From NCBI RefSeq assembly GCF_001969365.1, contig NZ_CP019316.1:1-60538 (forward strand): a stretch of DNA of 60,538 nucleotides, read 5' to 3'. The notes beneath the pieces are model-generated. The model had not been told where the DNA came from. It ran no database searches and was given only the letters and a program-made list of their open reading frames with translations. The position numbers were made by a program, and so were the translations under genes. Shown in pieces: positions 2,383 to 40,398 of the stretch. Position 1 is the stretch's first letter. Each line of letters starts with the position of its first letter. This DNA is from Tateyamaria omphalii. Its GTDB lineage: Bacteria; Pseudomonadota; Alphaproteobacteria; Rhodobacterales; Rhodobacteraceae.

Positions 2383-4321
2383 ATGAACTCCGTCCGTTTC
2401 CGTCTGTTGATCCTGGCCCTTGCGCCGATGGTCGTGCTGATGCCGCTGCTGCTGTTTCTGGGCATGACGCGGTGGACCGCGGATTATGACGAGGTGCTGA
2501 TAGCAAATGTCGAAAGCGATCTGCGCATCGCGGAGCAGTACCTGTCACGCCTGATGGTGCAGACCGGGGACGAGTTGCAGGCGGTCGCGGGGTCGGTCGA
2601 GTTTGCGCAGACGCCGCCCGCTGGGTTCGATGCGTTTTTTGAAGACAAGCGCGCAGAACTTGAGCTGGACTTTCTGTACTACCTGCCGCGCGACGAGGTG
2701 ACGGACCGGTGGCCCGTTGAACAGAGCGCGGCCAATGGGCAAGGCCGGACCGAAATCGACATTTTCAGCGGTGAGGCGTTGGCCGCGATATCACCAAACC
2801 TCGCCGAGCGCGCGCGCCTGCCGCTCATTGAAACCGAAGCAGCCGTGCCCACCGACCGCGTGGTCGAGGATCGGGGTATGGTCATTCACTCGGCGACACC
2901 CGTGACCTTGCCGGGGCGCGATGGCGTGCTGGTCGGGGGTGTGCTGCTGAACCGCAACCTTGGCTTTATCGATACGATCAATGCGCTGGTCTATCAGGAT
3001 GCCGTGGCGGGCGGGTCGCGACAGGGGACTGTCACCCTGTTTCTTGAGGATGTGCGCGTGTCGACCAATGTGCGCCTCTTTGAGGATGTGCGCGCCCTGG
3101 GCACGCGCGTGTCAGCCGCGGTGCGGGGCGAGGTTCTGGGCGAGGGGCGGACCTGGCTGGACCGCGCTTTCGTCGTGAACGACTGGTACATCTCGGGCTA
3201 TCTGCCGCTGACGGACAGTTTTGGTGACTATGTCGGCATGCTCTACGTCGGTGTGCTGGAAGAGCCGTTTAGGGTTGCCAAGCGCAACGCCTTTCTTGCC
3301 ATCCTTGGCGCATTCATCGCGGTGCTGCTCTTGTCGGCGCCGGTGTTCCTGCGTTTGGCCAAGGGGATTTTTGCCCCGCTCGAACGGATGACCCACACCA
3401 TGTTTCTGGTGCGTCGCGGCAACCTGTCGGCGCGGAACGGGCAGGGGGGCGGCACGGGCGAGATTGGCGAGGTGGCGGGCCATCTGGATGACCTGTTGGA
3501 TCAGGTGCAGGAGCGGGACGAGGAATTGAACGTGCGCGTGGCGCAACGCACTGCCGAGTTGCAACGCGCCAATGAAAAGCTGGAAGAGACGTTCCGGCAA
3601 CTGGTGATGAGCGAAAAGCTCGCCTCCATCGGCGAGATCACGGCCGGGGTCGCGCATGAGATCAACAATCCGGTGGCTGTCATTCAGGGCAATGTGGATG
3701 TGATCCGCGAAACGCTTGGCGACAAGAGTGATGCGATCCGCACCGAACTGGGCCTGGTGGATCGGCAGGTCGCGCGTATTCAGAGCATTGTCGCAAGCTG
3801 TTGCAGTTCGCGCGGCCCGGAGATTTTGCCGATGTCGACCGCAGCGTGCAGGTGGGGCCGGTCATTTCCGACTGCCTGGTGTTGGTCAATCACGTCGTTT
3901 CGCAGACCGAGATCCAGGTGCACACCGACCTGACTGCACTGAACGAGGTGCGCATTGATCCCGGAGAGATGCAACAGGTGCTGATCAATCTGATCATGAA
4001 TGCGGTGCAAGCGATGGGCGGGCAGGGGACGTTGTCCATCCAGGCCGAGGATGCTGCGCAGGACGGTGTGCCGGGCGTTCGGGTAGCTGTGTCAGACACG
4101 GGCCGGGCATTGCGCCCGAGCGGATCGACGATGTCTTTGCCCCGTTTTACACCACCAAGCGCGCGGAGGGGACGGGGCTGGGCCTGTCGATTTCTCAAAC
4201 CCTGATCCAGCGGGCCGGGGGCCTGATCCGGGCGCGCAACCGCGCGGCGGGCGGTGCCTGTTTCGAAGTCTGGCTGCCGATGGCAGAGCAGGACGAAACG
4301 CGGCTGACACACAGTGCGTGA
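2383..4321 (+). CDS. Sensor histidine kinase, NtrB/DctB-like (two frameshifts)
   Basis: Restored length is 646 residues. A transmembrane helix (about 8-28), a periplasmic Cache-like sensor region (29-300), a second helix (302-326), a HAMP segment (327-380), a coiled coil and the HisKA domain with GVAHEINNP (His425) are in the first frame. The frame is broken at about 3793-3796 and again at about 4101-4107; each break is repaired by adding one base. The ATPase domain then reads through N-box, DTGPGIAPE and GTGLGLSIS to the stop at 4321. It starts 9 bp after repA and faces acs. The ligand is unknown. A possible partner is the AAA+ response regulator at 40496, the only receiver-AAA+ protein here; that pairing is inference. 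Confidence 0.8.
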
Positions 4322-4691
4322 GCCGCGACTCGGAGTGTTGAAAACTACGTGATTCTGGGTAGGTCTCCGTTCTGTCAGGCTAGGTTGACAATTTGTCACA
4401 GGGGCGGGGTCTGAACTGTTGTTCGCTAACAGTATGCAAACGGATACCGTTCCCGTTTTGCGTGAAAATGCTAGAGCACCGAAAACCTTGGGAAAAATGA
4501 GACAAATATAAAATCATTTACAAAACCCAAGATGAAGCAGAACAAAAATTTACAAAAAAACCCAATAACACCAGCAGGCAAAGCATGGTTTTACAGAACC
4601 GTGTATGGTGATCCTCAACAGGCGAGTACAACACGCCCCGGGTGATGAAGCCGATGCAAAGCGGATCAGAGCCCAAACCGGAGGAGACACC
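4322..4691 (+). promoter_or_regulatory. Intergenic region before acs with repeated ATTTACAAAA boxes
   Basis: This 370-bp gap is strikingly AT-rich at 4490-4570 compared with its surroundings. It contains two near-identical boxes, ATTTACAAAACCCAA at 4516-4530 and ATTTACAAAAAAACCCAA from 4548, about 32 bp apart (three helical turns). No gene is evident. The boxes are the best candidates for the control region of the acs-adk operon; which protein binds them cannot be read from the sequence. Confidence 0.45.
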
Positions 4692-6664
4692 ATGAACATT
4701 CAAAGCACGCCGAATGCGGCCACTTTCCCGCCGTCCGAGGACACCAAGGCCCGCGCCCATCTGGACGCTGACGGCTATGCCAAGATGTATGCCGCGTCTG
4801 TCAACGACCCCGAAGCGTTCTGGGGCGAACAGGGCAAGCGGCTGGACTGGATCAAGCCCTATACAACGGTCAAGAACACGTCGTTCGCGCCCGGAAATAT
4901 CGACATTCGCTGGTTCGAGGATGGCACGCTGAACGTGGCGGCCAACTGCATCGACCGGCATCTGGAAACGCGCGGCGATCAGACGGCGATCATCTGGGAA
5001 CCGGATGACACGTCCAACGTCGCGCCGAAACATATCACATACCGCGAACTCCACAGCTCTGTTTGCAAGATGGCCAACATCCTGGAAGAGCTGGGCGTTC
5101 GCAAAGGCGACCGGGTTGTCATTTACCTCCCCATGATCCCGGAAGCCGCTTATGCGATGCTGGCCTGCGCCCGCATCGGTGCAATCCATTCCATCGTGTT
5201 TGCCGGTTTCTCCCCGGACGCGCTTGGGGCGCGGGTCAACGGGTGTGACGCCAAGGTCGTCATCACCGCGGATTACGCGCCCCGAGGCGGACGGGAGACC
5301 CCGCTGAAGTCGAACACCGATGCCGCGCTGTTGCACTGCAAGGACAGCGTGAAGTGCCTGGTGGTCAAGCGGACCGGGGGCCAGACCACCTGGACCGACC
5401 GCGATTATGATTACAACGAGATGGCGCTTGAGGCGTCGGACTATTCCGCCCCGGCAGAGATGAATGCCGAGGATCCGCTGTTCATCCTTTATACGTCAGG
5501 CTCAACCGGTCAGCCGAAGGGTGTGGTGCACACGTCGGGCGGCTATCTGACCTATGCCGCGATGACCCATCAATACACGTTCGACTATCACGAGGGCGAC
5601 GTGTTCTGGTGTACCGCTGACGTGGGTTGGGTCACGGGCCATAGCTATATCGTCTATGGCCCGCTGGCGAATGGTGCGACCACCATCATGTTCGAGGGCG
5701 TGCCGACCTTCCCTGACGCGGGGCGCTTCTGGGACGTGTGTGAGCGTCACAAGGTCACGCAGTTCTACACCGCGCCCACGGCGATCCGTGCCCTGATGGG
5801 TGCGGGCAACGAGTGGGTCGAAAAGTATGACCTGTCGTCCTTGCGCCTGCTCGGCTCGGTCGGTGAGCCGATCAATCCCGAAGCCTGGACCTGGTATCAC
5901 GAGGTTGTCGGCAATGGGAAATGCCCCATCGTCGATACGTTCTGGCAGACCGAAACCGGTGGTCACATGCTGACCCCGCTGCCGGGTGCCACGGACCTGA
6001 AACCCGGTTCGGCACAGCAGCCGTTCTTTGGCGTGCAGCCGGTTGTTCTGGACCCGCAAAGCGGCATCGAAATGGATGGCAATGGGATCGAAGGGGTGCT
6101 GTGCATCAAGGACAGCTGGCCCGGTCAGATGCGCACCGTTTGGGGCGATCATGAGCGGTTCGAGAAGACGTATTTCGGCGACTACAAGGGCTATTACTTC
6201 TCGGGCGATGGCTGTCGTCGGGACGAGGATGGCGATTATTGGATCACGGGCCGCGTGGACGATGTGATCAACGTGTCCGGACACCGGATGGGCACGGCCG
6301 AGGTTGAGAGCGCGCTGGTTGCGCACGCCAAGGTCGCGGAAGCTGCCGTGGTTGGGTATCCGCACGAGGTGAAGGGGCAGGGTATCTATGCTTACGTCAC
6401 CTTGATGAACGGCGAAGAGCCCACGCCCGAGCTGCGCAAGGAGCTGGAGGTTTGGGTCAGGACCGAGATTGGCCCGATTGCCAAGCCCGACCTGATCCAG
6501 TGGGCCCCCGGCCTGCCCAAGACACGCTCGGCAAGATCATGCGGCGGATCTTGCGCAAGATTGCCGAGGATGACTTTGGCGCACTTGGTGACACGTCCAC
6601 GCTCGCCGATCCGTCGGTTGTTGATGATCTGATCGAAAACCGTATGAACCGGAGTGACACATGA
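4692..6664 (+). CDS. acs: Acetyl-CoA synthetase (frameshift near C-terminus)
   Basis: AMP-forming acetate:CoA ligase, converting acetate, ATP and CoA to acetyl-CoA, AMP and pyrophosphate. The ATG at 4692 is preceded by GGAGGAGACACC, and the restored length is 657 residues, normal for Acs. The AMP-binding signature [11 protein letters not shown] is at about 268-278, followed by the usual [14 protein letters not shown] block and the C-terminal domain. At 6530 one G is missing inside the codons for PKTRSGK, the motif carrying the acetylation-regulated lysine; restoring it gives [17 protein letters not shown] to the stop at 6664. The stop overlaps the adk start (ATGA), so the two genes are translationally coupled. 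It is the last step of the plasmid's alcohol oxidation route. Confidence 0.93.
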
Positions 6665-7601: not shown

Positions 7602-7886
7602 ATGGCGGAAGAAACCACAAACATGTCCCGAGTGTCCGAAGCGGACAAGGGATATTGGGCGGCAAACGTCCGTATGATTCTGATATCACTGGTCATTTGG
7701 GCGCTCGTGTCCTTTGGCTTTGGCATTGTCCTGCGCCCGCTGCTCAGCGGGATTTCCGTGGGCGGCACCGACCTGGGCTTTTGGTTCGCGCAACAGGGAT
7801 CAATCCTGGTCTTTCTGGTGCTGATCTTTTTCTACGCCTGGCGGATGAACAAGCTCGATAAGCAATACGGCGTGGAAGAGGAATAA
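7602..7886 (+). CDS. DUF4212 small subunit of sodium/solute symporter
   Basis: A 94-residue membrane protein with two hydrophobic helices (about 28-52 and 62-82), typical of the DUF4212 partners found next to VC_2705-type sodium:solute symporters. The ATG at 7602 follows a strong AAGGAGGAGCCGC ribosome site. It ends 4 bp before the symporter gene. The 251-bp gap after adk (7351-7601) has no gene. Confidence 0.85.
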   Translation: MAEETTNMSRVSEADKGYWAANVRMILISLVIWALVSFGFGIVLRPLLSGISVGGTDLGFWFAQQGSILVFLVLIFFYAWRMNKLDKQYGVEEE

Positions 7887-7890: not shown

Positions 7891-9675
7891 ATGGACCAGT
7901 TTACCCTTAACCTGCTGTTTGTGGGCGCGTCATTCGCGCTGTACATCGGCATCGCTGTTTGGGCCCGCGCGGGGTCTACAAGCGAGTTTTACGCCGCCGG
8001 ACGCGGCGTGCACCCCGTCACCAACGGGATGGCCACCGCCGCTGACTGGATGTCGGCTGCGTCGTTCATTTCGATGGCGGGCCTGATCGCGTTCACGGGC
8101 TACGACAACTCGTCCTTCCTGATGGGGTGGACCGGTGGTTACGTACTCCTCGCGCTGCTCCTCGCCCCGTACTTGCGCAAGTTCGGCAAGTTCACCGTGT
8201 CCGAGTTTATCGGCGACCGGTTCTACAGCTCGACCGCGCGTCTGGTGGCCGTGATTTGTCTGCTGGTGGCGTCGATCACCTACGTGATCGGTCAGATGCA
8301 GGGCGTCGGTATTGCGTTCGGTCGCTTTCTTGAGATCGACACGACCTGGGGTCTGTTGATCGGGTCCTGTGTTGTGTTTGCCTATGCCGTTTTTGGCGGC
8401 ATGAAGGGTGTGACCTATACGCAGGTGGCGCAATATTGCGTGCTGATCACCGCGTATACGATCCCGGCGGTCTTTATCTCGTTGCAGCTGACGGGCAATC
8501 CGATCCCTGCGCTGGGTCTGTTCGGCACTGTTGAATCCGGTGAGCCGCTGTTGGCCAAGCTGGATGCCATCGTCACCGACTTGGGCTTTGCCGAGTATAC
8601 GGCAGCGCATGGATCAACCATCAACATGGTGCTGTTCACCCTGTCGCTGATGATTGGTACGGCTGGTCTGCCCCACGTCATCATGCGCTTCTTTACCGTG
8701 CCTCGCGTGTCTGACGCGCGTTGGTCCGCCGGTTGGACACTGGTGTTCATTGCCCTGCTGTATCTGACTGCGCCAGCGGTGGGTGCCATGGCGCGCCTGA
8801 ACATTTCGGAACTGATGTGGCCCAATGGCACGTCGGGTGAGGCTGTGAGCGTCGAAGCCATCGACAGCGATCCGGAATACGCGTGGATGGCGACGTGGCA
8901 GAAGACCGGTCTTCTGGATTGGGAAGACAAGAACGGCGACGGCCAGATCCAGTACTACAACGACGCGAATGCCGAGTTGCAGGAACGTGCCGCGGCCAAC
9001 GGTTGGGAAGGCAATGAGCTGACCAATTTCAACCGCGACATCCTGGTGCTGGCTAACCCCGAGATCGCGTCCCTTCCGGGCTGGGTGATCGGCCTTGTGG
9101 CGGCGGGTGGTCTTGCGGCGGCCCTGTCCACGGCGGCGGGTCTGCTTCTGGCGATCTCGTCTGCGGTAAGCCACGACTTGCTCAAAGGGCAGCTGACGCC
9201 GAACATGTCAGAGAAATCCGAGCTGCTTGCGGCCCGTATTTCGATGGCGGCGGCGATTGTGGTGGCTGTGATCCTGGGTTTGAACCCGCCGGGCTTTGCC
9301 GCGCAGACGGTGGCGCTGGCCTTTGGTCTGGCGGCGGCCTCGATCTTCCCTGCGCTGATGATGGGCATCTTCTCGACCCGCATCAACAATGTGGGGGCGG
9401 TTGCCGGGATGTTGGCCGGTCTGGTCGTGACCTTGCTGTATATCTTCCTGCACAAGGGCTGGTTCTTTATCCCGGACACCAATCTGTTCACGGATGACAA
9501 CCCGCTTCTGGGGCCGGTCAAGTCGACATCGTTCGGTGCGATCGGGGCCATGGTCAACTTTGTCACCGCCTATGTGGTGTCGGGCATGACCAAGGAAACC
9601 CCGCAAGAGATCAAGGATCTGGTGGAAAGCGTGCGTATCCCGCGTGGAGCGGGTGCCGCAGCGGCCGACCACTAG
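7891..9675 (+). CDS. actP: Sodium:solute symporter, acetate permease family (VC_2705 type)
   Basis: A 594-residue polytopic transporter of the SSS family, with about 13 hydrophobic segments and a longer hydrophilic insertion at about 310-385. Members beside DUF4212 and acs are associated with uptake of acetate and other short monocarboxylates. With Acs and Adk upstream this completes an acetate capture module. The gene is intact and lies 4 bp after the DUF4212 gene. Substrate specificity is inferred from family and context. Confidence 0.88.
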   Translation: MDQFTLNLLFVGASFALYIGIAVWARAGSTSEFYAAGRGVHPVTNGMATAADWMSAASFISMAGLIAFTGYDNSSFLMGWTGGYVLLALLLAPYLRKFGKFTVSEFIGDRFYSSTARLVAVICLLVASITYVIGQMQGVGIAFGRFLEIDTTWGLLIGSCVVFAYAVFGGMKGVTYTQVAQYCVLITAYTIPAVFISLQLTGNPIPALGLFGTVESGEPLLAKLDAIVTDLGFAEYTAAHGSTINMVLFTLSLMIGTAGLPHVIMRFFTVPRVSDARWSAGWTLVFIALLYLTAPAVGAMARLNISELMWPNGTSGEAVSVEAIDSDPEYAWMATWQKTGLLDWEDKNGDGQIQYYNDANAELQERAAANGWEGNELTNFNRDILVLANPEIASLPGWVIGLVAAGGLAAALSTAAGLLLAISSAVSHDLLKGQLTPNMSEKSELLAARISMAAAIVVAVILGLNPPGFAAQTVALAFGLAAASIFPALMMGIFSTRINNVGAVAGMLAGLVVTLLYIFLHKGWFFIPDTNLFTDDNPLLGPVKSTSFGAIGAMVNFVTAYVVSGMTKETPQEIKDLVESVRIPRGAGAAAADH

Positions 9676-9781
9676 GGCCTTTGGGCGCATCGCAGCCTCT
9701 CTTCCCTGCGATGCGCCTTGAAAACACCGGCCTGTCCGCGATGTCCGTGGGCAGGTCGCTTTCTTGACCGGGAGGTTGACC

Positions 9782-11185
9782 ATGTCGTCGCAGGATCTGA
9801 CCGTGTTGCCGGTGGACGAGTTGATGACCCGCGAGCCGGTCACGTGCGCGCCTGACGCCACGATCCGCGCAGCTGCGGAGTTGATGGCAGAGCGCCATAT
9901 CTCATCTGTTTGTATCATTGATGCGCAGGGCTTTCGCGGCATCGTCACGGTGCGTGACATCAATGCCAAGGTCGTGGCGGGTGGGGTGCGCCCGGATCAG
10001 CCCGTGGCCGAGGTGATGACGCCTGCGCCCCTGACTTTGCCTCCGGATGCCTTGGGACTGGACGTGCTTCACATGATGATGGAGCGGCGCATTGGCCATG
10101 TGCCGATTGTCGAGGGCGGGCGGCTGTTGGGTATCGTGACCCAGACGGACCTGACCCGATTTCAGGCGCTGTCGTCGGCGGAGTTGGTCCGTCTGGTGGC
10201 CGAGGCGCAGGATGTGCCCGCCATGGCGGAGGTCACCGCGCGCATTCCCGGCTTGCTTGCCCAACTGGTCGGTGCAGGCACACGTCATGATGCGGTGACG
10301 CGTTTGATTACGGACATTGCCGATACGGTCACACGCCGGTTGCTGACAATGGCCGAGGATGAGCTGGGTGCGCCGCCTGTGCCCTATCTGTGGCTCGCCT
10401 GCGGCAGTCAGGGGCGGCGCGAGCAGACGGGTGTGTCGGATCAGGACAATTGCCTGATCCTGTCTGATGATGTGGCCGAGGGTGACATGGTGTATTTTGC
10501 GCGGCTTGCGCAGATCGTAAGCGACGGGCTGCATGCCTGTGGCTATGTCTATTGCCCCGGTGACATGATGGCGACGAACCCGCGCTGGTGTCAGCCGTTG
10601 CGTGTGTGGCGCGGGTATTTCGAGGGTTGGATCGCCAAGCCGAACCCGGAGGCGCAGATGCTCGCCTCGGTCATGTTTGACTTGCGGCCCATCGGTGGGG
10701 ATGAGGCCCTGTTTGGCGATTTGCAGACAGACACGCTGGCCAAGGCGGCGCGCAATTCGATCTTTGTGGCGCATATGGTCGCCAATTCATTGAAGCATGC
10801 GCCGCCCTTGGGCCTGTTCAACCGGTTGCCGCGTACGCCCCTGGATCTGAAGCATACGGGCGTCGTGCCCGTGGTCGATCTGGGCCGCGTTTACGCGCTG
10901 CAGGGACAGGTGACGGCGGTCAACACGCGCGCGCGGTTGGAGGCGGCGTTGGACAGCGGGGCGCTGTCGTCAAGCGGTGGTGCCGATCTGATGGATGCGT
11001 ATGATATGATCGCGACCACGCGGTTGCGGCGGCAGGCGCGGCAGATCAGGGCAGGCGAGGCGCCGGACAATACCCTGCCGTCCGGCGCCTTGTCGGGGTT
11101 CGAGCGTAGTCACTTGCGCGACGCCTTTGTCGTCGTCAAAACCATGCAATCGGCATTGGGAACGGGCAAGGGAGCGTTGGGGTAG
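9782..11185 (+). CDS. CBS domain / DUF294 nucleotidyltransferase-like protein
   Basis: A 467-residue soluble protein. Two CBS domains (about 10-60 and 72-127) bind adenosine nucleotides in related proteins. They are followed by a DUF294 nucleotidyltransferase-like domain with CGSQGRREQ at about 207-215 and a DUF294 C-terminal helical domain. The ATG at 9782 follows GGGAGGTTGACC. Proteins of this architecture sit next to acetate symporters and acs in many proteobacteria and probably sense adenylate energy state to tune uptake; the target is unknown. Confidence 0.85.
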   Translation: MSSQDLTVLPVDELMTREPVTCAPDATIRAAAELMAERHISSVCIIDAQGFRGIVTVRDINAKVVAGGVRPDQPVAEVMTPAPLTLPPDALGLDVLHMMMERRIGHVPIVEGGRLLGIVTQTDLTRFQALSSAELVRLVAEAQDVPAMAEVTARIPGLLAQLVGAGTRHDAVTRLITDIADTVTRRLLTMAEDELGAPPVPYLWLACGSQGRREQTGVSDQDNCLILSDDVAEGDMVYFARLAQIVSDGLHACGYVYCPGDMMATNPRWCQPLRVWRGYFEGWIAKPNPEAQMLASVMFDLRPIGGDEALFGDLQTDTLAKAARNSIFVAHMVANSLKHAPPLGLFNRLPRTPLDLKHTGVVPVVDLGRVYALQGQVTAVNTRARLEAALDSGALSSSGGADLMDAYDMIATTRLRRQARQIRAGEAPDNTLPSGALSGFERSHLRDAFVVVKTMQSALGTGKGALG

Positions 11186-11188
11186 GTC

Positions 11189-11707
11189 ATGTTTGTGGAA
11201 TTGATTGCGACTGTCTTTGCCGGGATCGGGGCGGCGGGTCTGGTCATGGTGTTGAACCTGATGACTGGACGGCGCCTGCCCAAGTGGCTGATGCCTGTGG
11301 CGGCGGGGGCGGGGATGATCGGCATGACCATTTCCAATGAATACACGTGGTTCGGGCGCACTGCCGAACGGCTGCCCGACGGGGTCGAGATTGCGATGAC
11401 CGTGGATGAGCAAAGCTGGTTACGGCCCTGGACGCAGGTCGCGCCCTATACCAAGCGATTTGTGGCGGTGGATGTGGCAAACCTGCGCCGGAACGCCACG
11501 CAGCCGGATCAGCGGATGGTGGACCTGTATTTCTTTGGCCGCTGGTCACCGGTGAACCAGACGCCGATGCTAATGGACTGTGCGGGGGCGCGGTCCGCCG
11601 TGCTGATTGACGGTGCAGTGTTTGCCGCCGATGGCAGCGTCAGCGATGCCGACTGGCAGGCGATGCCCGGCGACGATCCGATCCTGACGATGGTGTGCGA
11701 GACCTGA
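11189..11707 (+). CDS. Hypothetical membrane protein between DUF294 and exonuclease genes
   Basis: A 172-residue protein with two predicted transmembrane helices at the N-terminus (about 3-25 and 32-50) followed by a soluble domain of about 120 residues with two cysteines (CAGA and VCET). I do not recognise a named family. It starts 4 bp after the DUF294 gene and ends 2 bp before the exonuclease gene, so it is part of that operon and likely linked to acetate uptake control. Confidence 0.75.
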   Translation: MFVELIATVFAGIGAAGLVMVLNLMTGRRLPKWLMPVAAGAGMIGMTISNEYTWFGRTAERLPDGVEIAMTVDEQSWLRPWTQVAPYTKRFVAVDVANLRRNATQPDQRMVDLYFFGRWSPVNQTPMLMDCAGARSAVLIDGAVFAADGSVSDADWQAMPGDDPILTMVCET

Positions 11708-11708
11708 G

Positions 11709-13118
11709 ATGCTGACCCGCCTGTCCCTGCGCCTGCGCATTTTTCTGTTCTTCTGCCTGATGGCGGCGGGCGGGGCGGTGCTGGCGGGTGGGGCGCTTTA
11801 CTTTGGCTGGGCGCGGGCCGAGGGGGCGTTGCCCGGCGGGCCGTTCGTGACGGCCTTTGTCCTTTTCGCCTTTCTCAATACGGGGTTGGCGGCGGTGGTG
11901 TGGCTGCTGTTTGACGAAAACGTCGCCAAGCCCATCAATGCGTTGGCCGCAGAGTTGCGGTTGCGGGCGCATTCTGGTGTCGCGCGAGAGGTGGACGGGG
12001 ATGCGGCCCGCTATCTGGGCGATCTTGCGCCCGCGGCGCAGGCCGTGTCGCAGGTGCTGAGTTCCAGCGTGATGGACAGCGCGACCGAGGTGGCCCACAA
12101 GACCGCGCGCCTTCAGGCAGAGGCGGAGCGGTTGACCGCGCTGCTGACCGAAATTCCGGTGGCCACCATCATGGTGAATGAGCGGATGGGTATTGTCCTT
12201 TATGACGGGCAGGCGGCTGAGATCCTGGCGGGGATCGCGCCGCCGCGGCTCAAGGCGCCACTGGTGGATTACTTCTATGCCGCTGATCTGGGTCGGGCCA
12301 AATCGACGATGAACCAGACGGCCGCAGAGGTGGCGTTTGATCTGCGGGACAAGGAGGGTGGCACAACTTTTGCGGCAAAGTTCAAACCGCTGGATGGGGC
12401 AGGGTACATGTTGCTCATTGAAATGCCCGAAGAGCCCATGTCGCCAGAGGCCGCGCGTCCGTTGGTTTACGACTTCGACTTGCTGAACGCGGGCGATGCG
12501 GCGAATACGCAGGACACAGCGCTGTCCGAGCTGTGCTTTGTTGCCTTCGATTCCGAAACCACCGGTCTGTCGACAACGGATGACGATGTGGTGCAGTTGG
12601 GGGCGGTGCGTATCTTGAACGGTCGGATTGTTGAGGGTGAGGTGCTGGACAGCTACGTCAATCCGGGCCGCCCGATCCCGCCTGCATCGACGGCGGTGCA
12701 CCATGTGTCTGATGTTGATGTCGCAGGCGCGCCCGACTTTGCGACTGCGGGGCGTGCGTTACATGGTTTTTGCCGTGATGCGGTTCTGGTGGCGCATAAC
12801 GCGCCTTTTGACATCGCCTTTTTACGCCGCGGGGCAGGAGCGATGGGGGTGACCTGGGACCATCCGGTTCTGGACACTGTTTTGCTGTCGGCCATCGTCT
12901 TTGGCACGACCGAAGAACACACGCTTGATGCGCTGTGCGACCGGCTCGACATCACGATCCTACCTGAGATGCGGCACACGGCCCTCGGGGATGCGCAGGT
13001 AACAGCGGAGGCGCTGGTGCGGCTGATCCCACTGCTTGAAGGCAAGGGATTGCGGACGCTGCGCGACGTGATTGCGGAGAGCAAGAAGCATGGGCGGTTG
13101 TTGCAGGACCTGAACTGA
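11709..13118 (+). CDS. Membrane-anchored PAS-type DEDDh 3'-5' exonuclease (DNA pol III epsilon-like)
   Basis: A 469-residue protein. Two transmembrane helices (about 8-30 and 45-68) and a HAMP-like stretch are followed by a PAS-like sensor region (about 140-235) and an RNase T/DnaQ exonuclease domain from about 275. The catalytic acidic residues are visible in FDSETTG, in the HNAPFDIAF segment and in HTALGDAQVT. DnaQ-like proteins of this composite form occur with DUF294 proteins and acetate symporters; their nucleic acid or nucleotide substrate has not been settled. It is the last gene of the acetate module. Confidence 0.82.
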   Translation: MLTRLSLRLRIFLFFCLMAAGGAVLAGGALYFGWARAEGALPGGPFVTAFVLFAFLNTGLAAVVWLLFDENVAKPINALAAELRLRAHSGVAREVDGDAARYLGDLAPAAQAVSQVLSSSVMDSATEVAHKTARLQAEAERLTALLTEIPVATIMVNERMGIVLYDGQAAEILAGIAPPRLKAPLVDYFYAADLGRAKSTMNQTAAEVAFDLRDKEGGTTFAAKFKPLDGAGYMLLIEMPEEPMSPEAARPLVYDFDLLNAGDAANTQDTALSELCFVAFDSETTGLSTTDDDVVQLGAVRILNGRIVEGEVLDSYVNPGRPIPPASTAVHHVSDVDVAGAPDFATAGRALHGFCRDAVLVAHNAPFDIAFLRRGAGAMGVTWDHPVLDTVLLSAIVFGTTEEHTLDALCDRLDITILPEMRHTALGDAQVTAEALVRLIPLLEGKGLRTLRDVIAESKKHGRLLQDLN

Positions 13119-13796: not shown

Positions 13797-16013
13797 TTAT
13801 GTAAAATCGTGTATTGTTGGCTTGAACCCTTCGCTGAGGAAGTCGCAGACGCGTTGCGCGTTCACTGGCTTCGACAGCAGCTTGATGCCAAGATGCTTGC
13901 AATGCAGCCGCAGTTCCGCAGTACGATCCGCCGATACGATGGCTGCCGGAACTTTGCCCCAGCGGTTCAGGATTTCCTCGTAGAGCGCGACACCGTTCAT
14001 GCCGGTGCCAAGCTGGAAGTCCAGCAGGAACACATCGGGGACCAGGTCGATTTCTGAAATCGTCTCGAGCGCTTCTTCGCCCGTTTCCGCGAGAATCACT
14101 TCCCCACCGCAGCTTTCGATCAGGTGCATGATCGCCTGGGCGACACTGCGGTTGTTTTCGACGAGCATGACAAGCAGGCCGCTCAGATCGCGCAGGGCAT
14201 GTGATTGTGCGGCGCGATGCGGATCCAGCAGCCGCGCAGCTGGCGCCGACACCGGAACAACGAGGGAAAAGCAACTGCCCGTTCCCGGCTTTGACCATAA
14301 CTCGAGCGGGTGGCGCAGCCCCTTGCAGGCGCGTTCGACGATGGCGAGCCCCAGGCCGAGACCAGAATTGGCGGCACCGGGTGCAAGTTGTTTGAATTCC
14401 TGAAAGATCGTATCCTGATCCTCCTCGGCGATGCCGCAGCCGGTGTCCCACACTTCAATTCTGGCAAAGTCACCAACCTGGCGCACCCCTGCCAGCACGC
14501 GCCCTTTGTCGGTGTAGCGGATGGCATTGGACAACAGGTTCTGCACGATCCGGCGCAGGTAGCCCGGGTCGCTGACAACGGTTAGGCTGCTGTGAACGAG
14601 AGAGAATGCCAGCCCCTTGGCGCGCGCACTTGGTGCCAGCTCATCCCGCAAGGGATTAAAGACTTCGGCAAGTGATACGGGCTGTACGTCAAACACCGCT
14701 CTGCCCGCATCGAGTTTCGAGATGGCCGACAGCGCCTCGATGATTTGTTCGACGCCCTGAAGGGCGGTTTCGGTTTTGGCGACGACCTGCTTGATCGACC
14801 GGTTGTCGGTCTGGTCCGCGATGGAGGAAACGAAGAGCTTGGCAGCGGACAAGGGCTGCAACAGATCGTGGCTGGCCGCTGCCACAAAGCGGGACTTGGA
14901 CGCGTTGGCGCGTTCGGCTTCGCCCAGGGCCTCTTCCAATTCGGCGGTGCGTTCCTCGACCCACCCTTCCAGCTTTTCGTTTACTTCTGAGAGCGCGCGC
15001 GTGGCGGCCCGTTCCGAGGTGACGTCGGTCAGGCTGATCACAAAGCCGCGGTCGGGCATCTCCTGCGCAAAGATGCTGTAGATCTGATCGCCGTTCCGGG
15101 TCACTTCAAAGGCGATGGGTTCGCGGGTGCGGGTCCGGTTGGTCCAGTCGATGAATCGCTCGGCGGTAAAGCTGGCGCCGAATATGAGCTCTTCGCGGAA
15201 CTGGTCCATCAGGTCGTCGAAATTCAGGGTGTCGCGCAGCCGGATCGGGGCGATGTCGAGCAGCCGGTCCATCCGTTTGTTCCAGCCCACGAGCGTCTTG
15301 TCGTGGTTGAAGATACAGACGCCCTGGTTCAGGTGGTCGAGCGTGGCCTGCAGCTTGCGCGCCTCCTGGTGGCGCATCTTGTCGCGTTCCTGCCGCTCCA
15401 TCCGGATGATGTCGGTGACGTCGGTTTGAAGGATCACTGTTCCGTTGCGCGACGTGCGGTGTTCGGAGGCTTGCAGCCAACGATCCCAGATCAGGCTGAC
15501 ATTAAAGACGACGTGTTCCTCACGATGCCGCTCAAGCCGTAATTGCGCCCAATCGTCCGCGGTTTGTCCATTTGGCAGGGCAAGAAAGCGGCTGTTTGAG
15601 ATGGATTTCACATAGTCCTGAAACGTCAGCCCCTCGCGCAGGATCGGTTCGACATCCTGCAAGTCGCGGCAAAAACGGCTGTTGTAGAGGACCAGCCGGT
15701 CGTCCTGATCAAACAGTGCAAAGCCTTCGTTGATGGTCTCGATTGCTTCGGTCAGATTGGCCTGTGCGGTTTCGGTTTCGCGGTTGGCCTGTTCGAGACG
15801 GGCGTTCGAATCCTGAAGCAGGTCCAGGGTGCGTTCCAGATCGCGGGTGCGTTCGCGCACTTCGGATTCCAGCAAGGCCGCGCGTTCGAACTGCTGATAG
15901 GCAAAGCCGGACTGTTCGGTCTTTTGTTCAACCCGCCGCATCAGGGCGTGCGAGATCTGCAGCAGCTTTTCGTTCTGCCGCTCAAGCGAGTCCTGTGGAT
16001 TGACCAGCGACAC
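13797..16013 (-). CDS. PAS hybrid histidine kinase with C-terminal receiver
   Basis: A 738-residue cytoplasmic hybrid kinase of the NahK/ErcS-prime type. A long N-terminal coiled coil (1-90), two PAS domains (about 88-200 and 215-335), a second coiled coil, a HisKA domain with ASHDLLQPLSAAK (His382), a HATPase domain (GLGLGLAIVERACKG) and a receiver with Asp665 (LLDFQLG) follow in order. The GTG start overlaps the stop of the FIST gene. Kinases of this class control alcohol and acetate oxidation genes through LuxR-type regulators (for example CrbS/CrbR and MxtR/ErdR systems), which fits the regulator two genes upstream. Confidence 0.87.
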   Translation of the reverse strand: MSLVNPQDSLERQNEKLLQISHALMRRVEQKTEQSGFAYQQFERAALLESEVRERTRDLERTLDLLQDSNARLEQANRETETAQANLTEAIETINEGFALFDQDDRLVLYNSRFCRDLQDVEPILREGLTFQDYVKSISNSRFLALPNGQTADDWAQLRLERHREEHVVFNVSLIWDRWLQASEHRTSRNGTVILQTDVTDIIRMERQERDKMRHQEARKLQATLDHLNQGVCIFNHDKTLVGWNKRMDRLLDIAPIRLRDTLNFDDLMDQFREELIFGASFTAERFIDWTNRTRTREPIAFEVTRNGDQIYSIFAQEMPDRGFVISLTDVTSERAATRALSEVNEKLEGWVEERTAELEEALGEAERANASKSRFVAAASHDLLQPLSAAKLFVSSIADQTDNRSIKQVVAKTETALQGVEQIIEALSAISKLDAGRAVFDVQPVSLAEVFNPLRDELAPSARAKGLAFSLVHSSLTVVSDPGYLRRIVQNLLSNAIRYTDKGRVLAGVRQVGDFARIEVWDTGCGIAEEDQDTIFQEFKQLAPGAANSGLGLGLAIVERACKGLRHPLELWSKPGTGSCFSLVVPVSAPAARLLDPHRAAQSHALRDLSGLLVMLVENNRSVAQAIMHLIESCGGEVILAETGEEALETISEIDLVPDVFLLDFQLGTGMNGVALYEEILNRWGKVPAAIVSADRTAELRLHCKHLGIKLLSKPVNAQRVCDFLSEGFKPTIHDFT

Positions 16014-24277: not shown

Positions 24278-24353
24278 TCGGTTCCTCCAGTCGAGTTCTG
24301 ATGCGTATCCGGTCGGGCCAGTTCTGAGCACGACCCTGTCGGGCTAGTTCTGA

Positions 24354-27342: not shown

Positions 27343-28242
27343 ATGACATTTCGACAAACGATCTTCTCCCTGGTGGTTGTGGGTCTGTCCGTTGGGCAGG
27401 CCCACGCTGCTGATCCTTGTGCAGACTACGTGCCCCAGCCCAAGCCCCAGAATGTGGGGCGGGACATCGTGGGTCAGGAGCTGGACCAGATCCAGGACCA
27501 GGGCCACATGCTGTTCGCCGTCTACGAAGACTACCCGCCCTATTCCTGGGAAGAGGGTGGTGAACCGATGGGCGTGGACATTGAGATTGCCCGCATCATT
27601 GCAGAGGATCTGGGCGTCGAGGCGCGCTTCAACTTCGTGGCCGCGGGTGAAAACCTGGACGCCGACCTTCGCAACAACATCTGGCGCGGTGCGCTGATCG
27701 GGGGGCGCATCGCCAATGTGATGATGCGCATCCCCTATGACAGCGCCTTCAAATGCCGGGTCGAGCAGGTCGTGTTCACCGGTCAATATGCGGGCGAAAG
27801 CATCGCGATTGCCTATGACAAGGCTACTTATCCGGACGAAAAACCCGTGCCCGCCTATTTCCGTTTCGACACTGTGGGGGTCGAGAACGATTCGATTTCT
27901 GACTTCTACCTGTCCGGTTTCGTCGGTGGTCAGTTACAGCCGAACATCCGGCGCTTCCCGACCACCGCCGCCGCCATGGACGCGCTGAACACAGGTGAGG
28001 TGAAGGCGGTAATGGGCCCCTTGGGCGAGTTGGAGCATGGACTGAGCGACACGAGCGACGTGCACCAGCCGCCCCTCGCAGGCTTTGCCGTCAGCAATTG
28101 GACGCTCGGCGTGGCGGTGAATTTCCGCTATCGCCCCCTGTCATATTCCGTCGATGACGCAATCAATTACGCGCTGCAAGACGGGCGGATCCCGGCGATT
28201 TACGCCAAATATGGGCTGACCCACCAAACCCCTGAAAGATAA
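27343..28242 (+). CDS. Quinoprotein-associated periplasmic binding protein (MxaJ/XoxJ-like)
   Basis: A 299-residue exported protein (signal peptide 1-22) of the family TIGR03871, putative ABC substrate-binding proteins associated with quinoprotein dehydrogenases. XoxJ and MxaJ are thought to help activate the apo-dehydrogenase, perhaps during PQQ or metal insertion, rather than serve a transporter. It lies 4 bp after cytochrome c550 and lacks any adjacent permease, in keeping with that view. Cysteines near residues 26 and 130 could form a disulfide. Confidence 0.84.
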   Translation: MTFRQTIFSLVVVGLSVGQAHAADPCADYVPQPKPQNVGRDIVGQELDQIQDQGHMLFAVYEDYPPYSWEEGGEPMGVDIEIARIIAEDLGVEARFNFVAAGENLDADLRNNIWRGALIGGRIANVMMRIPYDSAFKCRVEQVVFTGQYAGESIAIAYDKATYPDEKPVPAYFRFDTVGVENDSISDFYLSGFVGGQLQPNIRRFPTTAAAMDALNTGEVKAVMGPLGELEHGLSDTSDVHQPPLAGFAVSNWTLGVAVNFRYRPLSYSVDDAINYALQDGRIPAIYAKYGLTHQTPER

Positions 28243-28329: not shown

Positions 28330-28848
28330 ATGAATCTCAGCGACTCACGTGTCATCGACGCCGACCGGGCCACGGTCTGGGCCGCGATCCTCGATCCCGA
28401 GGTGCTGAAGGCCTGCGTGCCCGGTTGCCAGGAGATGGAGGGCACGCCGGAGGAAGGCTTCACCGCGACCGTGGTGCAAAAAGTCGGCCCGGTGAAGGCG
28501 ACGTTCAAAGGGGCCGTGACCCTGTCGGATATGCAAGCCCCGGAAAGCGTGAACATCGCGGGTGAGGGCAAGGGCGGTGCCGCCGGCTTTGCCAAGGGTG
28601 GCGCACAGGTCCGGCTTGAGGCGCAGGGCGACCAGACTGTTCTGCATTACGATGTCGAAGCGAAGGTGGGCGGCAAGCTTGCCCAGCTTGGCAGCCGCAT
28701 CATCGATGGGTTCGCAAAGAAGATGGCAGACCAGTTTTTCAACAATTTTCAGGAACATGTGGGCGCGCCTGCGCCCGCCGAAGATACCGAGCCGGAGACG
28801 TCCGAAGACGCACCCAAGAAGGGTTGGCTCAAGCGCCTCGTCAGCTAG
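28330..28848 (+). CDS. coxG: CoxG/SRPBCC-family accessory protein
   Basis: A 172-residue CoxG-type SRPBCC protein. The N-terminal region (RATVWAAILDPEVLKACVPGC) and the following beta strands match the carbon monoxide dehydrogenase subunit G family. CoxG proteins recruit or mature molybdenum hydroxylases at the membrane; the C-terminal tail here (WLKRLVS after an acidic linker) could be the anchor. It precedes the three hydroxylase subunits. Confidence 0.86.
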   Translation: MNLSDSRVIDADRATVWAAILDPEVLKACVPGCQEMEGTPEEGFTATVVQKVGPVKATFKGAVTLSDMQAPESVNIAGEGKGGAAGFAKGGAQVRLEAQGDQTVLHYDVEAKVGGKLAQLGSRIIDGFAKKMADQFFNNFQEHVGAPAPAEDTEPETSEDAPKKGWLKRLVS

Positions 28849-28887
28849 GCGCACACCAGTGTTTCAGACATTCCAAGGGAGGAACGA

Positions 28888-29373
28888 ATGACCAAGGTAA
28901 CCATGACGGTGAACGGCAAGTCCGTTTCCGGCGACGTGGAAGGGCGCACATTGCTGGCGTCCTTTCTGCGCGATGATCAGGGCCTGACCGGCACGCATAT
29001 CGGATGTGATACATCGCAGTGTGGCGCGTGCGTTGTGCATGTGGACGGTGTGGCCGTCAAATCCTGCACGATGCTTGCTGCGGAAGCCGATGGGGCGACC
29101 GTGGACACAATCGAAGGCCAGGCCAACGCCGACGGGTCGCTGAACGTGATCCAGCAAGCGTTTCAGGACCACCACGGCCTGCAATGCGGATTTTGCACGC
29201 CGGGTATGGTGATGTCCGCTGCGGCCCTGCTGAAAGAGAACCCGCAGCCGTCCGAGCAGGAGGTGCGCGAGTATCTCGAAGGCAACATCTGCCGCTGCAC
29301 TGGCTACCACAACATCGTCAAGGCGATCATGGCGGCGTCTGGCCAGGACGTGACCGCCATCGCTGCCGAGTGA
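28888..29373 (+). CDS. coxS: Molybdenum hydroxylase [2Fe-2S] subunit (CoxS-like)
   Basis: A 161-residue small subunit with two [2Fe-2S] clusters. The plant-ferredoxin type site is CDTSQCGAC (about residue 43 on), and the second cluster site is formed by CGFCTPG and CRCTGY (about 104-140). It transfers electrons from the molybdopterin site of the large subunit to the FAD subunit. Start follows AAGGGAGGAACG. It is the first structural gene of an S-L-M hydroxylase order. Confidence 0.9.
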
Positions 29374-31921: not shown

Positions 31922-32704
31922 ATGTATAATTTTGACGTTGAAAGACCCGGCACAATTGCCGACGCGGCTGCTGCGATGGGTGGTGACGAAGCGCAGGCAC
32001 TGGGTGGGGGGCAGACACTGATCCCCACACTGAAACAGCGCCTGGCCAGCCCGACGACCCTGGTATCACTGTCCGGCGTGGCCGAGATGCAGGGGATCAG
32101 CAAAGACGGCGACACCCTACGCATCGGTGGGGCAACTACCCATGCAACGGTTGCTGCCGACGGCAGCTACCCCGGCTTGTCGGCGCTGGCCGCACAGATC
32201 GGGGATCCGGCAGTGCGCAATCGTGGGACCATCGGTGGCAGCCTTGCCAACAACGACCCGGCAGCCTGCTATCCGGCGGCAGCTTTGGCCTCGGGTGCCA
32301 CCATCGTAACCAACACGCGCGAGATCGCGGCGGATGACTACTTCCAAGGCATGTTCGACACCGCCCTTGATGAAGGTGAGATCATCACCGCCGTCTCCTT
32401 CCCGATCCCGCAGGCCGCGAACTATCAGAAGTTTGTGCAACCTGCCTCGCGCTTTGCTCTGGTCGGTGTGTTTGTCGCCAAATACGCGGACGGCGTTCGT
32501 GTGGCTGTGACAGGTGCCTCGAACGAGGGCGTGTTCCGCTGGACCGAGGCCGAAGCCGCGCTGAGCGCCAACTTCTCCGCCTCCGCCCTCGATGGGTTGA
32601 CCATACCAGCGGACAACATGATCACGGACCTGCACGGTTCGGCCACATACCGCGCGCATCTGGTCAAGGTGATGACCGGCCGCGCGGTGACCGCTGCCAG
32701 CTAA
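31922..32704 (+). CDS. coxM: Molybdenum hydroxylase FAD-binding subunit (CoxM-like)
   Basis: A 260-residue medium subunit of the CoxM type. FAD-binding motifs GGGQTLIPTL (about 26-35) and TIGGSLANNDPAACYP (about 104-119) are clear. It accepts electrons from the [2Fe-2S] subunit and passes them to the respiratory chain. It closes the hydroxylase operon and is followed by a bidirectional terminator. Confidence 0.9.
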   Translation: MYNFDVERPGTIADAAAAMGGDEAQALGGGQTLIPTLKQRLASPTTLVSLSGVAEMQGISKDGDTLRIGGATTHATVAADGSYPGLSALAAQIGDPAVRNRGTIGGSLANNDPAACYPAAALASGATIVTNTREIAADDYFQGMFDTALDEGEIITAVSFPIPQAANYQKFVQPASRFALVGVFVAKYADGVRVAVTGASNEGVFRWTEAEAALSANFSASALDGLTIPADNMITDLHGSATYRAHLVKVMTGRAVTAAS

Positions 32705-35840: not shown

Positions 35841-36605
35841 ATGCAAGACGCCCGGTTCGACATAACGGCCCTTGGCCTGTCCCTGCTCAGCCTCTTGGCC
35901 CTGTGGTGGGCGGCGGCGTGGCTGGGCAGTGACCCCACGGTCCTGCCCTCCCCGGCCGAGGTCTGGGGCATCTTCCTGCGCGAAGTCGCGGATGGCGAAA
36001 TGCAGGTGCATTTCACCGCCACCTTGCTGCGCGTCACCGCGGCCTTCTCCCTCGCCATGGGGTTCGGGTGCCTCATCGGGCTGGTCATGGGCTTCAACGC
36101 AACGATCAACCGCTGGTTCTCGACTTGGCTGGTGGTACTTCTGAACGTGCCTGCACTCGTCGTCATCGTGCTCTGCTATCTCTGGATCGGCTTGAACGAA
36201 GTGGCTGCAATTACCGCCGTCGCCCTTAACAAGACAGCCATGGTCGCCGTTGCGATCCGCGAGGGGGTCCACGCCCTAGACCCCAAGTTGCGCGACGTGG
36301 CGCACGTGTTCCGCATGTCGCCCACAACCCGGTTGCGCCATGTGATCCTGCCGCAGCTCTGGCCCTACATTGCCACGTCAACCCGCAACGGGCTCGCCAT
36401 CATATGGAAGATCGTTCTGGTGGTGGAATTCCTGGGCCGCAGCAACGGGATCGGCTTCCAGATCCATCTCTATTTCCAACTGTTCGAGACAGGGTACGTG
36501 CTGGCCTACGCCCTCAGCTTCGTGGCCTTCATGCTGCTTCTGGAATTCACGCTTCTGCGCGCGATGGAGACCCGCGCCACCCGCTGGCGTCAGCGCACCG
36601 CCTAG
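35841..36605 (+). CDS. ABC transporter permease, NitT/TauT (TauC/SsuC-like)
   Basis: A 254-residue inner membrane permease with six hydrophobic segments and the EAA-type loop (REGVHALDPKLRDVAHVFRM). No binding protein or ATPase is adjacent. The complementary NitT/TauT-type pair lies at 20165-21799, so I infer that these three form one transporter whose genes were separated by about 14 kb. It overlaps the VWA gene on the opposite strand by 4 bp. Confidence 0.84.
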   Translation: MQDARFDITALGLSLLSLLALWWAAAWLGSDPTVLPSPAEVWGIFLREVADGEMQVHFTATLLRVTAAFSLAMGFGCLIGLVMGFNATINRWFSTWLVVLLNVPALVVIVLCYLWIGLNEVAAITAVALNKTAMVAVAIREGVHALDPKLRDVAHVFRMSPTTRLRHVILPQLWPYIATSTRNGLAIIWKIVLVVEFLGRSNGIGFQIHLYFQLFETGYVLAYALSFVAFMLLLEFTLLRAMETRATRWRQRTA

Positions 36606-38364: not shown

Positions 38365-38370
38365 GGGGGA

Positions 38371-40275: not shown

Positions 40276-40290
40276 GTATTAAAAAGTGGC

Positions 40291-40398
40291 TTAGATCACG
40301 TCACGCTCGGCGCCACGGTCGTCGTCTTCACCGGGGCCATACATGTTGATCTCCATGCCGCACTTCACTTCGCGCGCCTTGGGTTTTGTCCATGCCAT
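40291..40398 (-). CDS. pqqA: PQQ precursor peptide PqqA
   Basis: A 35-residue precursor peptide. The Glu and Tyr that become PQQ are in MEINMYGP with the required three-residue spacing, after the leader AWTKPKAREVKCG. The ATG at 40398 is preceded by an excellent GAGGAGG ribosome site, fitting the high expression this substrate peptide needs. The extra acidic-rich tail (EDDDRGAERDVI) is longer than in enteric PqqA. Confidence 0.95.
   Translation of the reverse strand: MAWTKPKAREVKCGMEINMYGPGEDDDRGAERDVI

What the first reader, a model, noticed from the sequence alone, without database searches (positions are those of the whole stretch)
2383..40398. Near-complete alcohol to acetyl-CoA route on one plasmid
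PQQ synthesis, quinoprotein, cytochrome c550, metal uptake, form II molybdenum hydroxylase, acetate symporter, Acs and Adk cover cofactor, electron acceptor, both oxidation steps and activation. Transfer of this plasmid could confer growth on ethanol in one event, subject to a host able to make molybdopterin and oxidise cytochrome c.
Basis: inference. Interest (0 to 1): 0.75.

Follow-up and report, generated by a model that had tools for sequence, protein, structure and literature searches.

The report
Marine bacterial plasmid for oxidising alcohol
A closed 60-kilobase plasmid of a marine bacterium carries a rare-earth-type alcohol-oxidising system together with acetate-activating and formate-oxidising genes; the parts are of known kinds and the plasmid looks long inherited rather than freely transferable, but two of its key genes are interrupted in the sequence as assembled.

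Summary
The gene types named are there. The window is a complete circular plasmid (contig C5) of a Roseobacteraceae genome: acs-adk-DUF4212/SSF; a ped-type alcohol module (PQQ dehydrogenase, PedF, PedABC, pqqABCDE); form II coxSLM; and, outside the finding, formate dehydrogenase with TupABC. Corrections: (1) the dehydrogenase has the lanthanide-type D-x-D site and the importer is of the PedA1A2BC lanthanide family; (2) two steps are not intact as assembled: acs loses its C-terminal lysine region, coxL is split between two frames; (3) the symporter is VC_2705 family, not ActP; (4) the kinase at 2383 matches one beside formate dehydrogenase genes. Fourteen frame breaks lie in 11 plasmid genes; a strict test gave 13 sites in 54 kb of plasmid, 1 in 217 kb of chromosome. 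Nine split genes tested are still under purifying selection, so consensus error or very recent damage is likelier than old decay. The plasmid is colinear (98%) with Tateyamaria sp. syn59 scaffold 14 and as diverged as chromosomal genes: old co-inheritance, not one-event transfer. It holds the genome's only PQQ-domain dehydrogenase. Best lead: form II cox, of unclear role in print, lies in this module in 7 of 9 scored genomes. New member of a known kind.

The parts
1357..2373 (+). Rep3-type replication initiator
   Evidence: PF21205/PF01051; 97% to syn59 plasmid
1..736 (-). ParA, part on this side of the contig cut (continues 60538-60076, with a frame change near 60252)
   Evidence: tblastn with Pseudosulfitobacter ParA; syn59 gene
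59094..60076 (-). ParB-like partition protein, two frame breaks (about 59915 and 59180)
   Evidence: PF18090
2383..4318 (+). Cache-domain histidine kinase, two frame breaks; counterpart sits beside formate dehydrogenase genes in Alloyangia
4605..6658 (+). Acs acetate-CoA ligase; frame break at about 6510 removes the C-terminal lysine region
   Evidence: TIGR02188
6661..7350 (+). Adenylate kinase (Adk) beside acs
   Evidence: PF00406; Acs beside Adk in 25 of the 29 best family loci
7602..7886 (+). DUF4212 small symporter subunit
   Evidence: PF13937, TIGR03647 over cut-off
7891..9675 (+). VC_2705-family sodium/solute symporter (acetate is inferred; not ActP)
   Evidence: TIGR03648 809.6 bits; ActP model 143.5 of 1099
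9764..13118 (+). DUF294/CBS protein, hypothetical, 3'-5' exonuclease
   Evidence: DUF4212-SSF-DUF294-hypothetical-exonuclease in the same order in Ruegeria sp. TM1040
13797..16031 (-). NahK/ErcS-like hybrid histidine kinase (below model cut-off)
   Evidence: NF041831 394 of 1500 bits, NF041832 343 of 400
16013..17209 (-). FIST / NosP-like sensor (below NosP cut-off)
   Evidence: PF08495; NF041558 357 of 450
17242..17943 (-). ErdR-like response regulator (below model cut-off)
   Evidence: NF041830 best model, 165 of 390
18052..19884 (-). PedH-like PQQ alcohol dehydrogenase with D-x-D lanthanide signature (WDYDG) and vicinal cysteines
   Evidence: TIGR03075; PedH 6zcw 830.6 bits, ExaA 1flg 692.6
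20093..21799 (+). Second ABC transporter: NMT1-type binding protein and ATPase (permease at 35841-36605); substrate unknown
22324..26746 (-). PedC permease, PedB ATPase, small protein, YVTN beta-propeller, PedA-type binding protein: lanthanide-importer family
   Evidence: TIGR03861, 03864, 03866, 03863 over cut-off; function in P. putida from PMC6839425 (passages)
26640..27338 (+). PedF cytochrome c550
   Evidence: TIGR04494; one CXXCH
27343..28242 (+). PedG/MxaJ/XoxJ-type periplasmic binding protein (name by position)
   Evidence: PF00497; 81% match to P. pseudonitzschiae gene
28330..29373 (+). CoxG and CoxS of the molybdenum hydroxylase
   Evidence: PF06240; PF00111/PF01799
29460..31822 (+). 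CoxL, form II (AYRGAGR), in two frames that meet at about 31298
31922..32704 (+). CoxM FAD subunit
   Evidence: PF00941
32759..35736 (-). ApbE and NosR-like membrane Fe-S protein
   Evidence: PF02424, PF12801; NF046105 465 of 1000
35841..36605 (+). ABC permease, probably of the second transporter
   Evidence: PF00528
36602..37297 (-). vWA-domain protein
   Evidence: PF13519
37303..40398 (-). pqqE, pqqD, pqqC, pqqB, pqqA
   Evidence: TIGR02109, 03859, 02111, 02108, 02107 over cut-off; PF08042
40475..56564 (.). Formate dehydrogenase module with sigma-54 regulator, cytochrome and maturation genes; five frame breaks (outside the finding)
56669..59075 (-). TupABC-type tungstate transporter; tupA and tupC each have a frame break (outside the finding)

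Best explanation
The window is a complete, low-mobility, long-inherited plasmid that gathers three gene sets known from Roseobacteraceae: an acetate-activation operon, a lanthanide-type ped alcohol-oxidation module with its own PQQ synthesis and lanthanide importer, and a formate dehydrogenase with tungstate uptake. Inferred flow: the PedH-like enzyme oxidises a primary alcohol (and partly its aldehyde) in the periplasm and PedF carries the electrons towards cytochrome c oxidase; remaining aldehyde is oxidised by the form II CoxSLM hydroxylase or by chromosomal aldehyde dehydrogenases; the acid enters through the VC_2705/DUF4212 symporter or by diffusion and is activated by Acs, with Adk recycling AMP; acetyl-CoA is assimilated by chromosomal enzymes (a crotonyl-CoA reductase is present). 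The frame breaks in acs, coxL and nine other genes are most likely consensus errors of this contig, or very recent damage. Shown: gene content, closure, colinear relative, breaks. Inferred: substrates, electron route, cause of the breaks.
For: Models over cut-off. D-x-D site: query WDYDG aligns with PedH WDFDG; ExaA has WDFSG; Asp323/Asp325 as PedH ligands and the extra Asp as signature in PMC11845868 (passages). PedA1A2BC as lanthanide importer in PMC6839425 (passages). PedE/PedH oxidise ethanol and short aldehydes, PMC12997753 (section 8 read). Near-syntenic ped-coxSLM-pqq module on a P. pseudonitzschiae plasmid. Colinearity with Tateyamaria sp. syn59 scaffold 14 over 59462 of 60538 bases. 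Equal divergence of 36 plasmid and 57 chromosomal genes. Strict break test: 13 sites in 54.4 kb (12 in genes, one upstream of the sigma-54 gene), 1 in 216.7 kb of chromosome, 0 in 18.3 kb of other plasmids. dN/dS 0.031-0.182 in 9 of the 11 split genes, 0.017-0.107 in 16 intact ones. The four in-frame stops lie before the gene start or at a frame break. Crotonyl-CoA reductase model over cut-off on the chromosome.
Against: Breaks are only weakly tied to homopolymers (7 of 13 zones, 4.8 expected) and unevenly placed: 1 of 14 in the 26.6-kb alcohol module (p 0.005), which fits real decay outside it as well as error. A looser test gave 13 window sites in 44.6 kb, but also 11 chromosomal sites in 254.5 kb and 4 in 217.5 kb of the control genome G240. 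An intrinsic frame model gave 14 calls in the window, 37 in 360 kb of chromosome, 4 in 40 kb of C2/C3 and 29 in 302 kb of relatives. G240, labelled same genus, lacks the dehydrogenase at E 1e-150. No substrate data.
Confidence: 0.7

Rival explanations
1. The frame breaks are real: in this strain the plasmid is decaying, the form II hydroxylase and the plasmid Acs are dead, and alcohol oxidation relies on chromosomal aldehyde dehydrogenases and Acs.
For: Breaks are dense on the plasmid, not clearly homopolymer-linked, and mostly outside the alcohol module; chromosomal back-ups exist.
Against: Most pieces of the split genes are 77-100% identical to syn59 proteins, with low dN/dS and no stop inside a gene away from the breaks in the 25 genes tested; ParA and ParB are broken too, which would threaten plasmid inheritance.
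Confidence: 0.25
2. The molybdenum hydroxylase is not the acetaldehyde step: the PedH-like enzyme and NAD-type aldehyde dehydrogenases do it, and CoxSLM acts on another substrate that merely shares the neighbourhood.
For: PedE/PedH oxidise short aldehydes themselves (PMC12997753); module without coxSLM in THAF37 and in 2 of 9 scored genomes; 64 of 80 CoxL loci show no quinoprotein core within the flank held (42 of the 55 loci of 18 kb or more); the closest solved structure of the first-frame piece is a CO dehydrogenase large chain, 402 bits, aldehyde oxidoreductase 139.
Against: 7 of 9 PQQ-anchored genomes carry it in the module; linkage recurs in both halves of the CoxL tree; the best NCBIfam model of all three subunits (first-frame piece for L) is glyceraldehyde dehydrogenase, below cut-off.
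Confidence: 0.45
3. The physiological alcohol is not ethanol but methanol or larger alcohols, with the formate module finishing C1 oxidation.
For: PedH-type enzymes are broad (PMC12997753); a formate dehydrogenase module shares the plasmid.
Against: Acs, Adk and symporter on the same plasmid suit C2; no dedicated formaldehyde pathway was recognised among the ORFs scanned, though none was searched for by name.
Confidence: 0.35
4. A mobile catabolic plasmid able to give ethanol growth in one transfer.
For: All named gene types on one replicon; similar modules occur on other roseobacter plasmids.
Against: No VirB4-family protein in the genome; no relaxase recognised among the 50 ORFs scanned with Pfam, without a dedicated relaxase search; divergence equal to chromosome.
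Confidence: 0.08

Closest known systems
ped cluster of Pseudomonas putida KT2440 (PedH, PedF, PedG, PedA1A2BC, pqq)
   Same: PedH-like dehydrogenase with extra Asp, PedF, PedG-type binding protein, PedABC importer; regulators of the NahK/NosP/ErdR kind as best-matching names
   Different: Beside it lies coxSLM, and no PedI-type aldehyde dehydrogenase was matched on the plasmid; NosR-like/ApbE and a second ABC transporter; plasmid-borne with acs and formate dehydrogenase
Pseudosulfitobacter pseudonitzschiae plasmid module (NZ_CP086948.1, L003)
   Same: Same gene order from NahK-like kinase to pqqA, with coxL in one frame
   Different: coxG lies beyond pqqA there; 281-kb plasmid; no acs or adk annotated in the 48.6 kb shown (a sodium:solute symporter is); formate dehydrogenase hits of the species are on other plasmid records
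Tateyamaria sp. syn59 scaffold 14 (NZ_VCBA01000014.1)
   Same: Colinear over 98% of the window, circularly permuted
   Different: coxL and acs each read in one frame there
Form II Cox (coxSLM, AYRGAGR)
   Same: Motif and gene order (definition in PMC13203968, passages)
   Different: Here and in part of its relatives placed inside a quinoprotein alcohol module
acs-adk-DUF4212-SSF operon of Roseobacteraceae
   Same: Acs in 25, DUF4212 in 26 and SSF in 27 of the 29 best Adk loci
   Different: Here on a small plasmid near the alcohol module

Membership tests
Lanthanide-type PQQ alcohol dehydrogenase (ExaF/PedH) | PQQ methanol/ethanol family model over cut-off | tested here: met
   TIGR03075 771.6 vs 480.05
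Lanthanide-type PQQ alcohol dehydrogenase (ExaF/PedH) | Extra Asp two residues after the catalytic Asp (D-x-D) | tested here: met
   WDYDG against PedH WDFDG, ExaA WDFSG
Lanthanide-type PQQ alcohol dehydrogenase (ExaF/PedH) | Vicinal cysteine pair | tested here: met
   CC at residue 146
Lanthanide-type PQQ alcohol dehydrogenase (ExaF/PedH) | Activity depends on lanthanide | not testable with these tools
   needs enzyme assay
PedA1A2BC lanthanide importer family | PedC, ATPase, binding-protein models over cut-off | tested here: met
   TIGR03861 446.4 vs 241.35; TIGR03864 337.9 vs 302.25; TIGR03863 458.9 vs 413.6
PQQ biosynthesis pqqABCDE | All five models over cut-off | tested here: met
Form II Cox | AYRGAGR motif in CoxL | tested here: met
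   residue 369 of the first-frame piece
Form II Cox | Gene order coxSLM | tested here: met
   starts 28888, 29460, 31922 on +
Form II Cox | One continuous CoxL of about 787-790 residues | tested here: not met
   two frames in the assembly; all 87 relatives' CoxL rows taken from loci read in one open stretch of 700 residues or more
Carbon monoxide dehydrogenase or other named molybdenum hydroxylase | An NCBIfam subunit model over cut-off | tested here: not met
   CO_dehy_Mo_lg 448 of 991 (first frame) and 193 (second frame); glyceraldehyde dehydrogenase alpha 514 of 790 and 125; scored on separate pieces
ActP acetate symporter | TIGR02711 over cut-off | tested here: not met
   143.5 vs 1099.25; VC_2705 family met instead
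Acetate-CoA ligase AcsA | Family model over cut-off | tested here: met
   TIGR02188 955 vs 724.95
Acetate-CoA ligase AcsA | C-terminal catalytic Lys after PKTRSG (motif recalled) | tested here: not met
   frame leaves the motif after PKTRS; syn59 Acs continues in one frame
ErdR / NosP / NahK regulators | Named models over cut-off | tested here: not met
   165 of 390, 357 of 450, 394 of 1500; best-matching names only
Self-transmissible plasmid | VirB4-family ATPase in the genome | tested here: not met
   0 matches to PF03135; the control genomes rang in 1 of 14
Closed plasmid | Replication and partition genes, ends that join | tested here: met
   Rep3, ParA across the cut, contig length equals window, relative permuted

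The most novel reading that the evidence does not exclude
Form II Cox (coxSLM) of the marine roseobacters, whose role is called unclear in print, is the molybdenum aldehyde oxidase that partners lanthanide-dependent quinoprotein alcohol dehydrogenases, perhaps passing electrons through the neighbouring NosR-like/ApbE flavo-Fe-S protein; this plasmid is one inherited package of that pathway.
Probability: 0.33. Interest if true: 0.65.

Novelty: new member of a known kind. Interest (0 to 1): 0.4.

Why it matters
It shows a lanthanide-type alcohol module, acetate activation and formate oxidation kept together on one old plasmid in two related marine strains. More usefully, the recurrent placement of form II cox genes inside that module makes a standing question, what form II Cox does if it does not oxidise CO (PMC13203968, passages; PMC6794299, passages), directly testable by growth on alcohols and aldehydes. 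It also warns that this plasmid should be resequenced before its broken genes are read as biology.

Tried and rejected
Rfam and tRNA scans of the window found nothing. An intrinsic codon-model frame test had too high a background to use alone; a loose homology test also caught antisense and gene-junction artefacts, so a strict version was run. One strict site (41865) proved to lie upstream of the sigma-54 gene, on an antisense frame, and is not counted among the 14 gene breaks; the cytochrome break and the second ParB break were seen but did not pass the strict criteria. Homopolymer explanation: weak (13 zones, chosen before the acs break was found). Two split genes, sigma-54 regulator and FdhG, were not in the dN/dS set. 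NosR-like/ApbE as an obligate partner of coxSLM: rejected, since the NosR-like gene is present in 9 of 9 scored PQQ-anchored genomes, 2 of them without coxL, and in THAF37 without coxSLM. Ten PQQ-anchored genomes were chosen by hand from the 81 with a match, mostly for high similarity and distance from contig ends; one (G106) ran off its contig and was dropped. Adk loci: the best 29 beside the window's own were examined, of matches in 172 of 295 genomes. The gene-divergence test kept ORFs with at least 70% identity, half coverage and pN below pS. Paper searches with no hits. Other plasmids of the genome: comparators covered only 18.3 of 160 kb, so they say little.


Full report
What it is. A Rep3 initiator lies at 1357-2373, and a ParA gene reads from one contig end into the other, so the contig is a closed plasmid. 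Its GC (61.7%) is close to that of 620 kb of sampled chromosome (61.5%).

Gene inventory of the finding. acs, adk, DUF4212, a VC_2705 symporter, DUF294/CBS, a hypothetical and an exonuclease fill 4.6-13.1 kb. NahK-like, NosP-like and ErdR-like regulators (best-matching names, all below those models' cut-offs) fill 13.8-17.9 kb. The PQQ dehydrogenase, PedABC-type importer, beta-propeller, PedF and a PedG-type binding protein follow to 28.2 kb, then coxG-coxS-coxL-coxM, apbE, a NosR-like gene, a vWA protein and pqqEDCBA to 40.4 kb.

Refinements. The dehydrogenase scores 830.6 bits to PedH (6zcw) and 692.6 to ExaA (1flg); at the metal site it has WDYDG where PedH has WDFDG and ExaA WDFSG. The extra Asp is the lanthanide signature (PMC11845868, passages). 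The metal importer belongs to the family of PedA1A2BC, shown in P. putida to serve lanthanide-dependent growth (PMC6839425, passages). In one roseobacter, growth on ethanol needed lanthanum and XoxF5 (PMC5934484, passages). The cache kinase at 2383 is the homologue of one beside Alloyangia formate dehydrogenase genes, so it belongs with the other half of the plasmid: a formate dehydrogenase module at 40.5-56.6 kb and TupABC at 56.7-59.1 kb. The molybdenum hydroxylase passes no NCBIfam cut-off: the best model of each subunit is glyceraldehyde dehydrogenase, but the second-frame piece of L is closest to CO dehydrogenase, and so is the first-frame piece among solved structures. Sequence alone does not settle its substrate.

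Broken genes. Compared with the colinear plasmid of Tateyamaria sp. syn59 and other relatives, 14 frame breaks lie in 11 genes: ParA 1, ParB 2, cache kinase 2, Acs 1, CoxL 1, sigma-54 regulator 2, cytochrome 1, FdhG 1, Fer4 protein 1, TupA 1, TupC 1. Two hit the proposed route. In coxL the AYRGAGR loop is in the first frame and the GCGEAG loop in the second. In acs the frame changes after PKTRS, so the lysine region (motif recalled) is lost. A strict homology test found 13 sites in 54.4 kb of the window, 12 of them in genes, 1 in 216.7 kb of chromosome and 0 in 18.3 kb of other plasmids (p about 4e-8 for 12 against 1). A looser test gave 13 sites in 44.6 kb, 11 in 254.5 kb of chromosome and 4 in 217.5 kb of the control genome G240. 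An intrinsic model gave 23 calls per 100 kb in the window, 10.3 in chromosome, 10.0 in C2/C3 and 9.6 in relatives. Nine of the 11 split genes keep dN/dS of 0.031-0.182, against 0.017-0.107 for 16 intact ones, and the stops counted lie before a gene start or at a break. I read the breaks as probable consensus errors or very recent damage; against this, homopolymer enrichment is weak and only 1 of 14 lies in the alcohol module (p 0.005). Continuous copies exist in syn59 and in relatives.

Inheritance and transfer. The syn59 scaffold 14 (59686 bases) is colinear with 59462 of the window's 60538 bases, circularly permuted. Over 36 plasmid and 57 chromosomal genes the two strains differ about equally (median amino acid identity 93.5 and 93.0%, pS 0.472 and 0.446; Mann-Whitney p 0.06 for pS, 0.96 for pN). 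This fits long co-inheritance. No VirB4-family protein was found in the genome. G240, labelled same genus, lacks the dehydrogenase at E 1e-150. Transfer in one event is thus not what the data suggest.

How widespread. The dehydrogenase is present in 81 of 394 family genomes, the window's own counted, at E 1e-150, some on contigs of several megabases. In 9 scorable of 10 hand-picked genomes, 7 carry coxL and 9 the NosR-like gene in the module. Of the 80 best CoxL loci in genome records, 16 have the quinoprotein core within the flank held (up to 10 kb), 5 more only the regulators and 3 only PedC/PedB; of the 55 loci of 18 kb or more, 13 have the core; all 13 with the NosR-like gene have the core. 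On a CoxL tree of 89 rows, the 25 linked rows lie in both halves (14 and 11) and need 16 changes, at least 12 by starred branches; shuffled labels need 21.9 on average, 0 of 500 as few. Linkage is thus clustered but repeatedly gained or lost. Acs, DUF4212 and SSF lie beside Adk in 25, 26 and 27 of the 29 best Adk loci, so that operon is ordinary.

Redundancy. The plasmid has the genome's only PF01011 dehydrogenase and only PqqE over cut-off. Acs-like proteins (2 more), Adk (1 more over cut-off), MoCoBD (6 more) and aldehyde dehydrogenases (15 match rows, none on C5) are elsewhere. A crotonyl-CoA reductase is on the chromosome. Curing should cost PQQ-based alcohol oxidation but not necessarily acetate growth.

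Novelty. The modules, and the plasmid location of the alcohol module in roseobacters, have close relatives in public records, so this is a new member of a known kind. The most interesting lead is the form II cox connection; [quoted passage not shown] I did not find the connection in the listings, of which three papers were opened in passages; that is no proof that it is unpublished.

Noticed in passing
window 33628-35736 and relatives: A NosR-like membrane Fe-S gene accompanies the quinoprotein module in 9 of 9 scored PQQ-anchored genomes, also where coxL is absent; no paper held both NosR-like and pyrroloquinoline quinone.
   Followed up: partly
window 40475-59075: A second metabolic set, formate dehydrogenase with TupABC tungstate transport, shares the plasmid and holds 7 of the 14 frame breaks (5 in the formate module, 2 in tup).
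   Followed up: partly
L203 (G000:C4:1-20000): Another plasmid-sized contig of the same genome matches bacteriochlorophyll gene regions of roseobacter plasmids.
   Followed up: no
L068 (G000:C2:1-20000): A further contig matches beta-hydroxyaspartate cycle genes bhcABCD.
   Followed up: no
L120, L121, L122: Ruegeria marina has three identical CoxL rows, one with the quinoprotein core beside it; the loci are cut by contig ends, so possibly one repeat split by assembly.
   Followed up: no
window 20093-21799 and 35841-36605: An NMT1/Ssu-type ABC transporter appears split, its likely permease lying 14 kb away on the same strand; substrate unknown.
   Followed up: no
window 9764-11185: The DUF294/CBS protein aligns only to residues 134-606 of the Ruegeria TM1040 homologue; the syn59 gene is equally short.
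   Followed up: no
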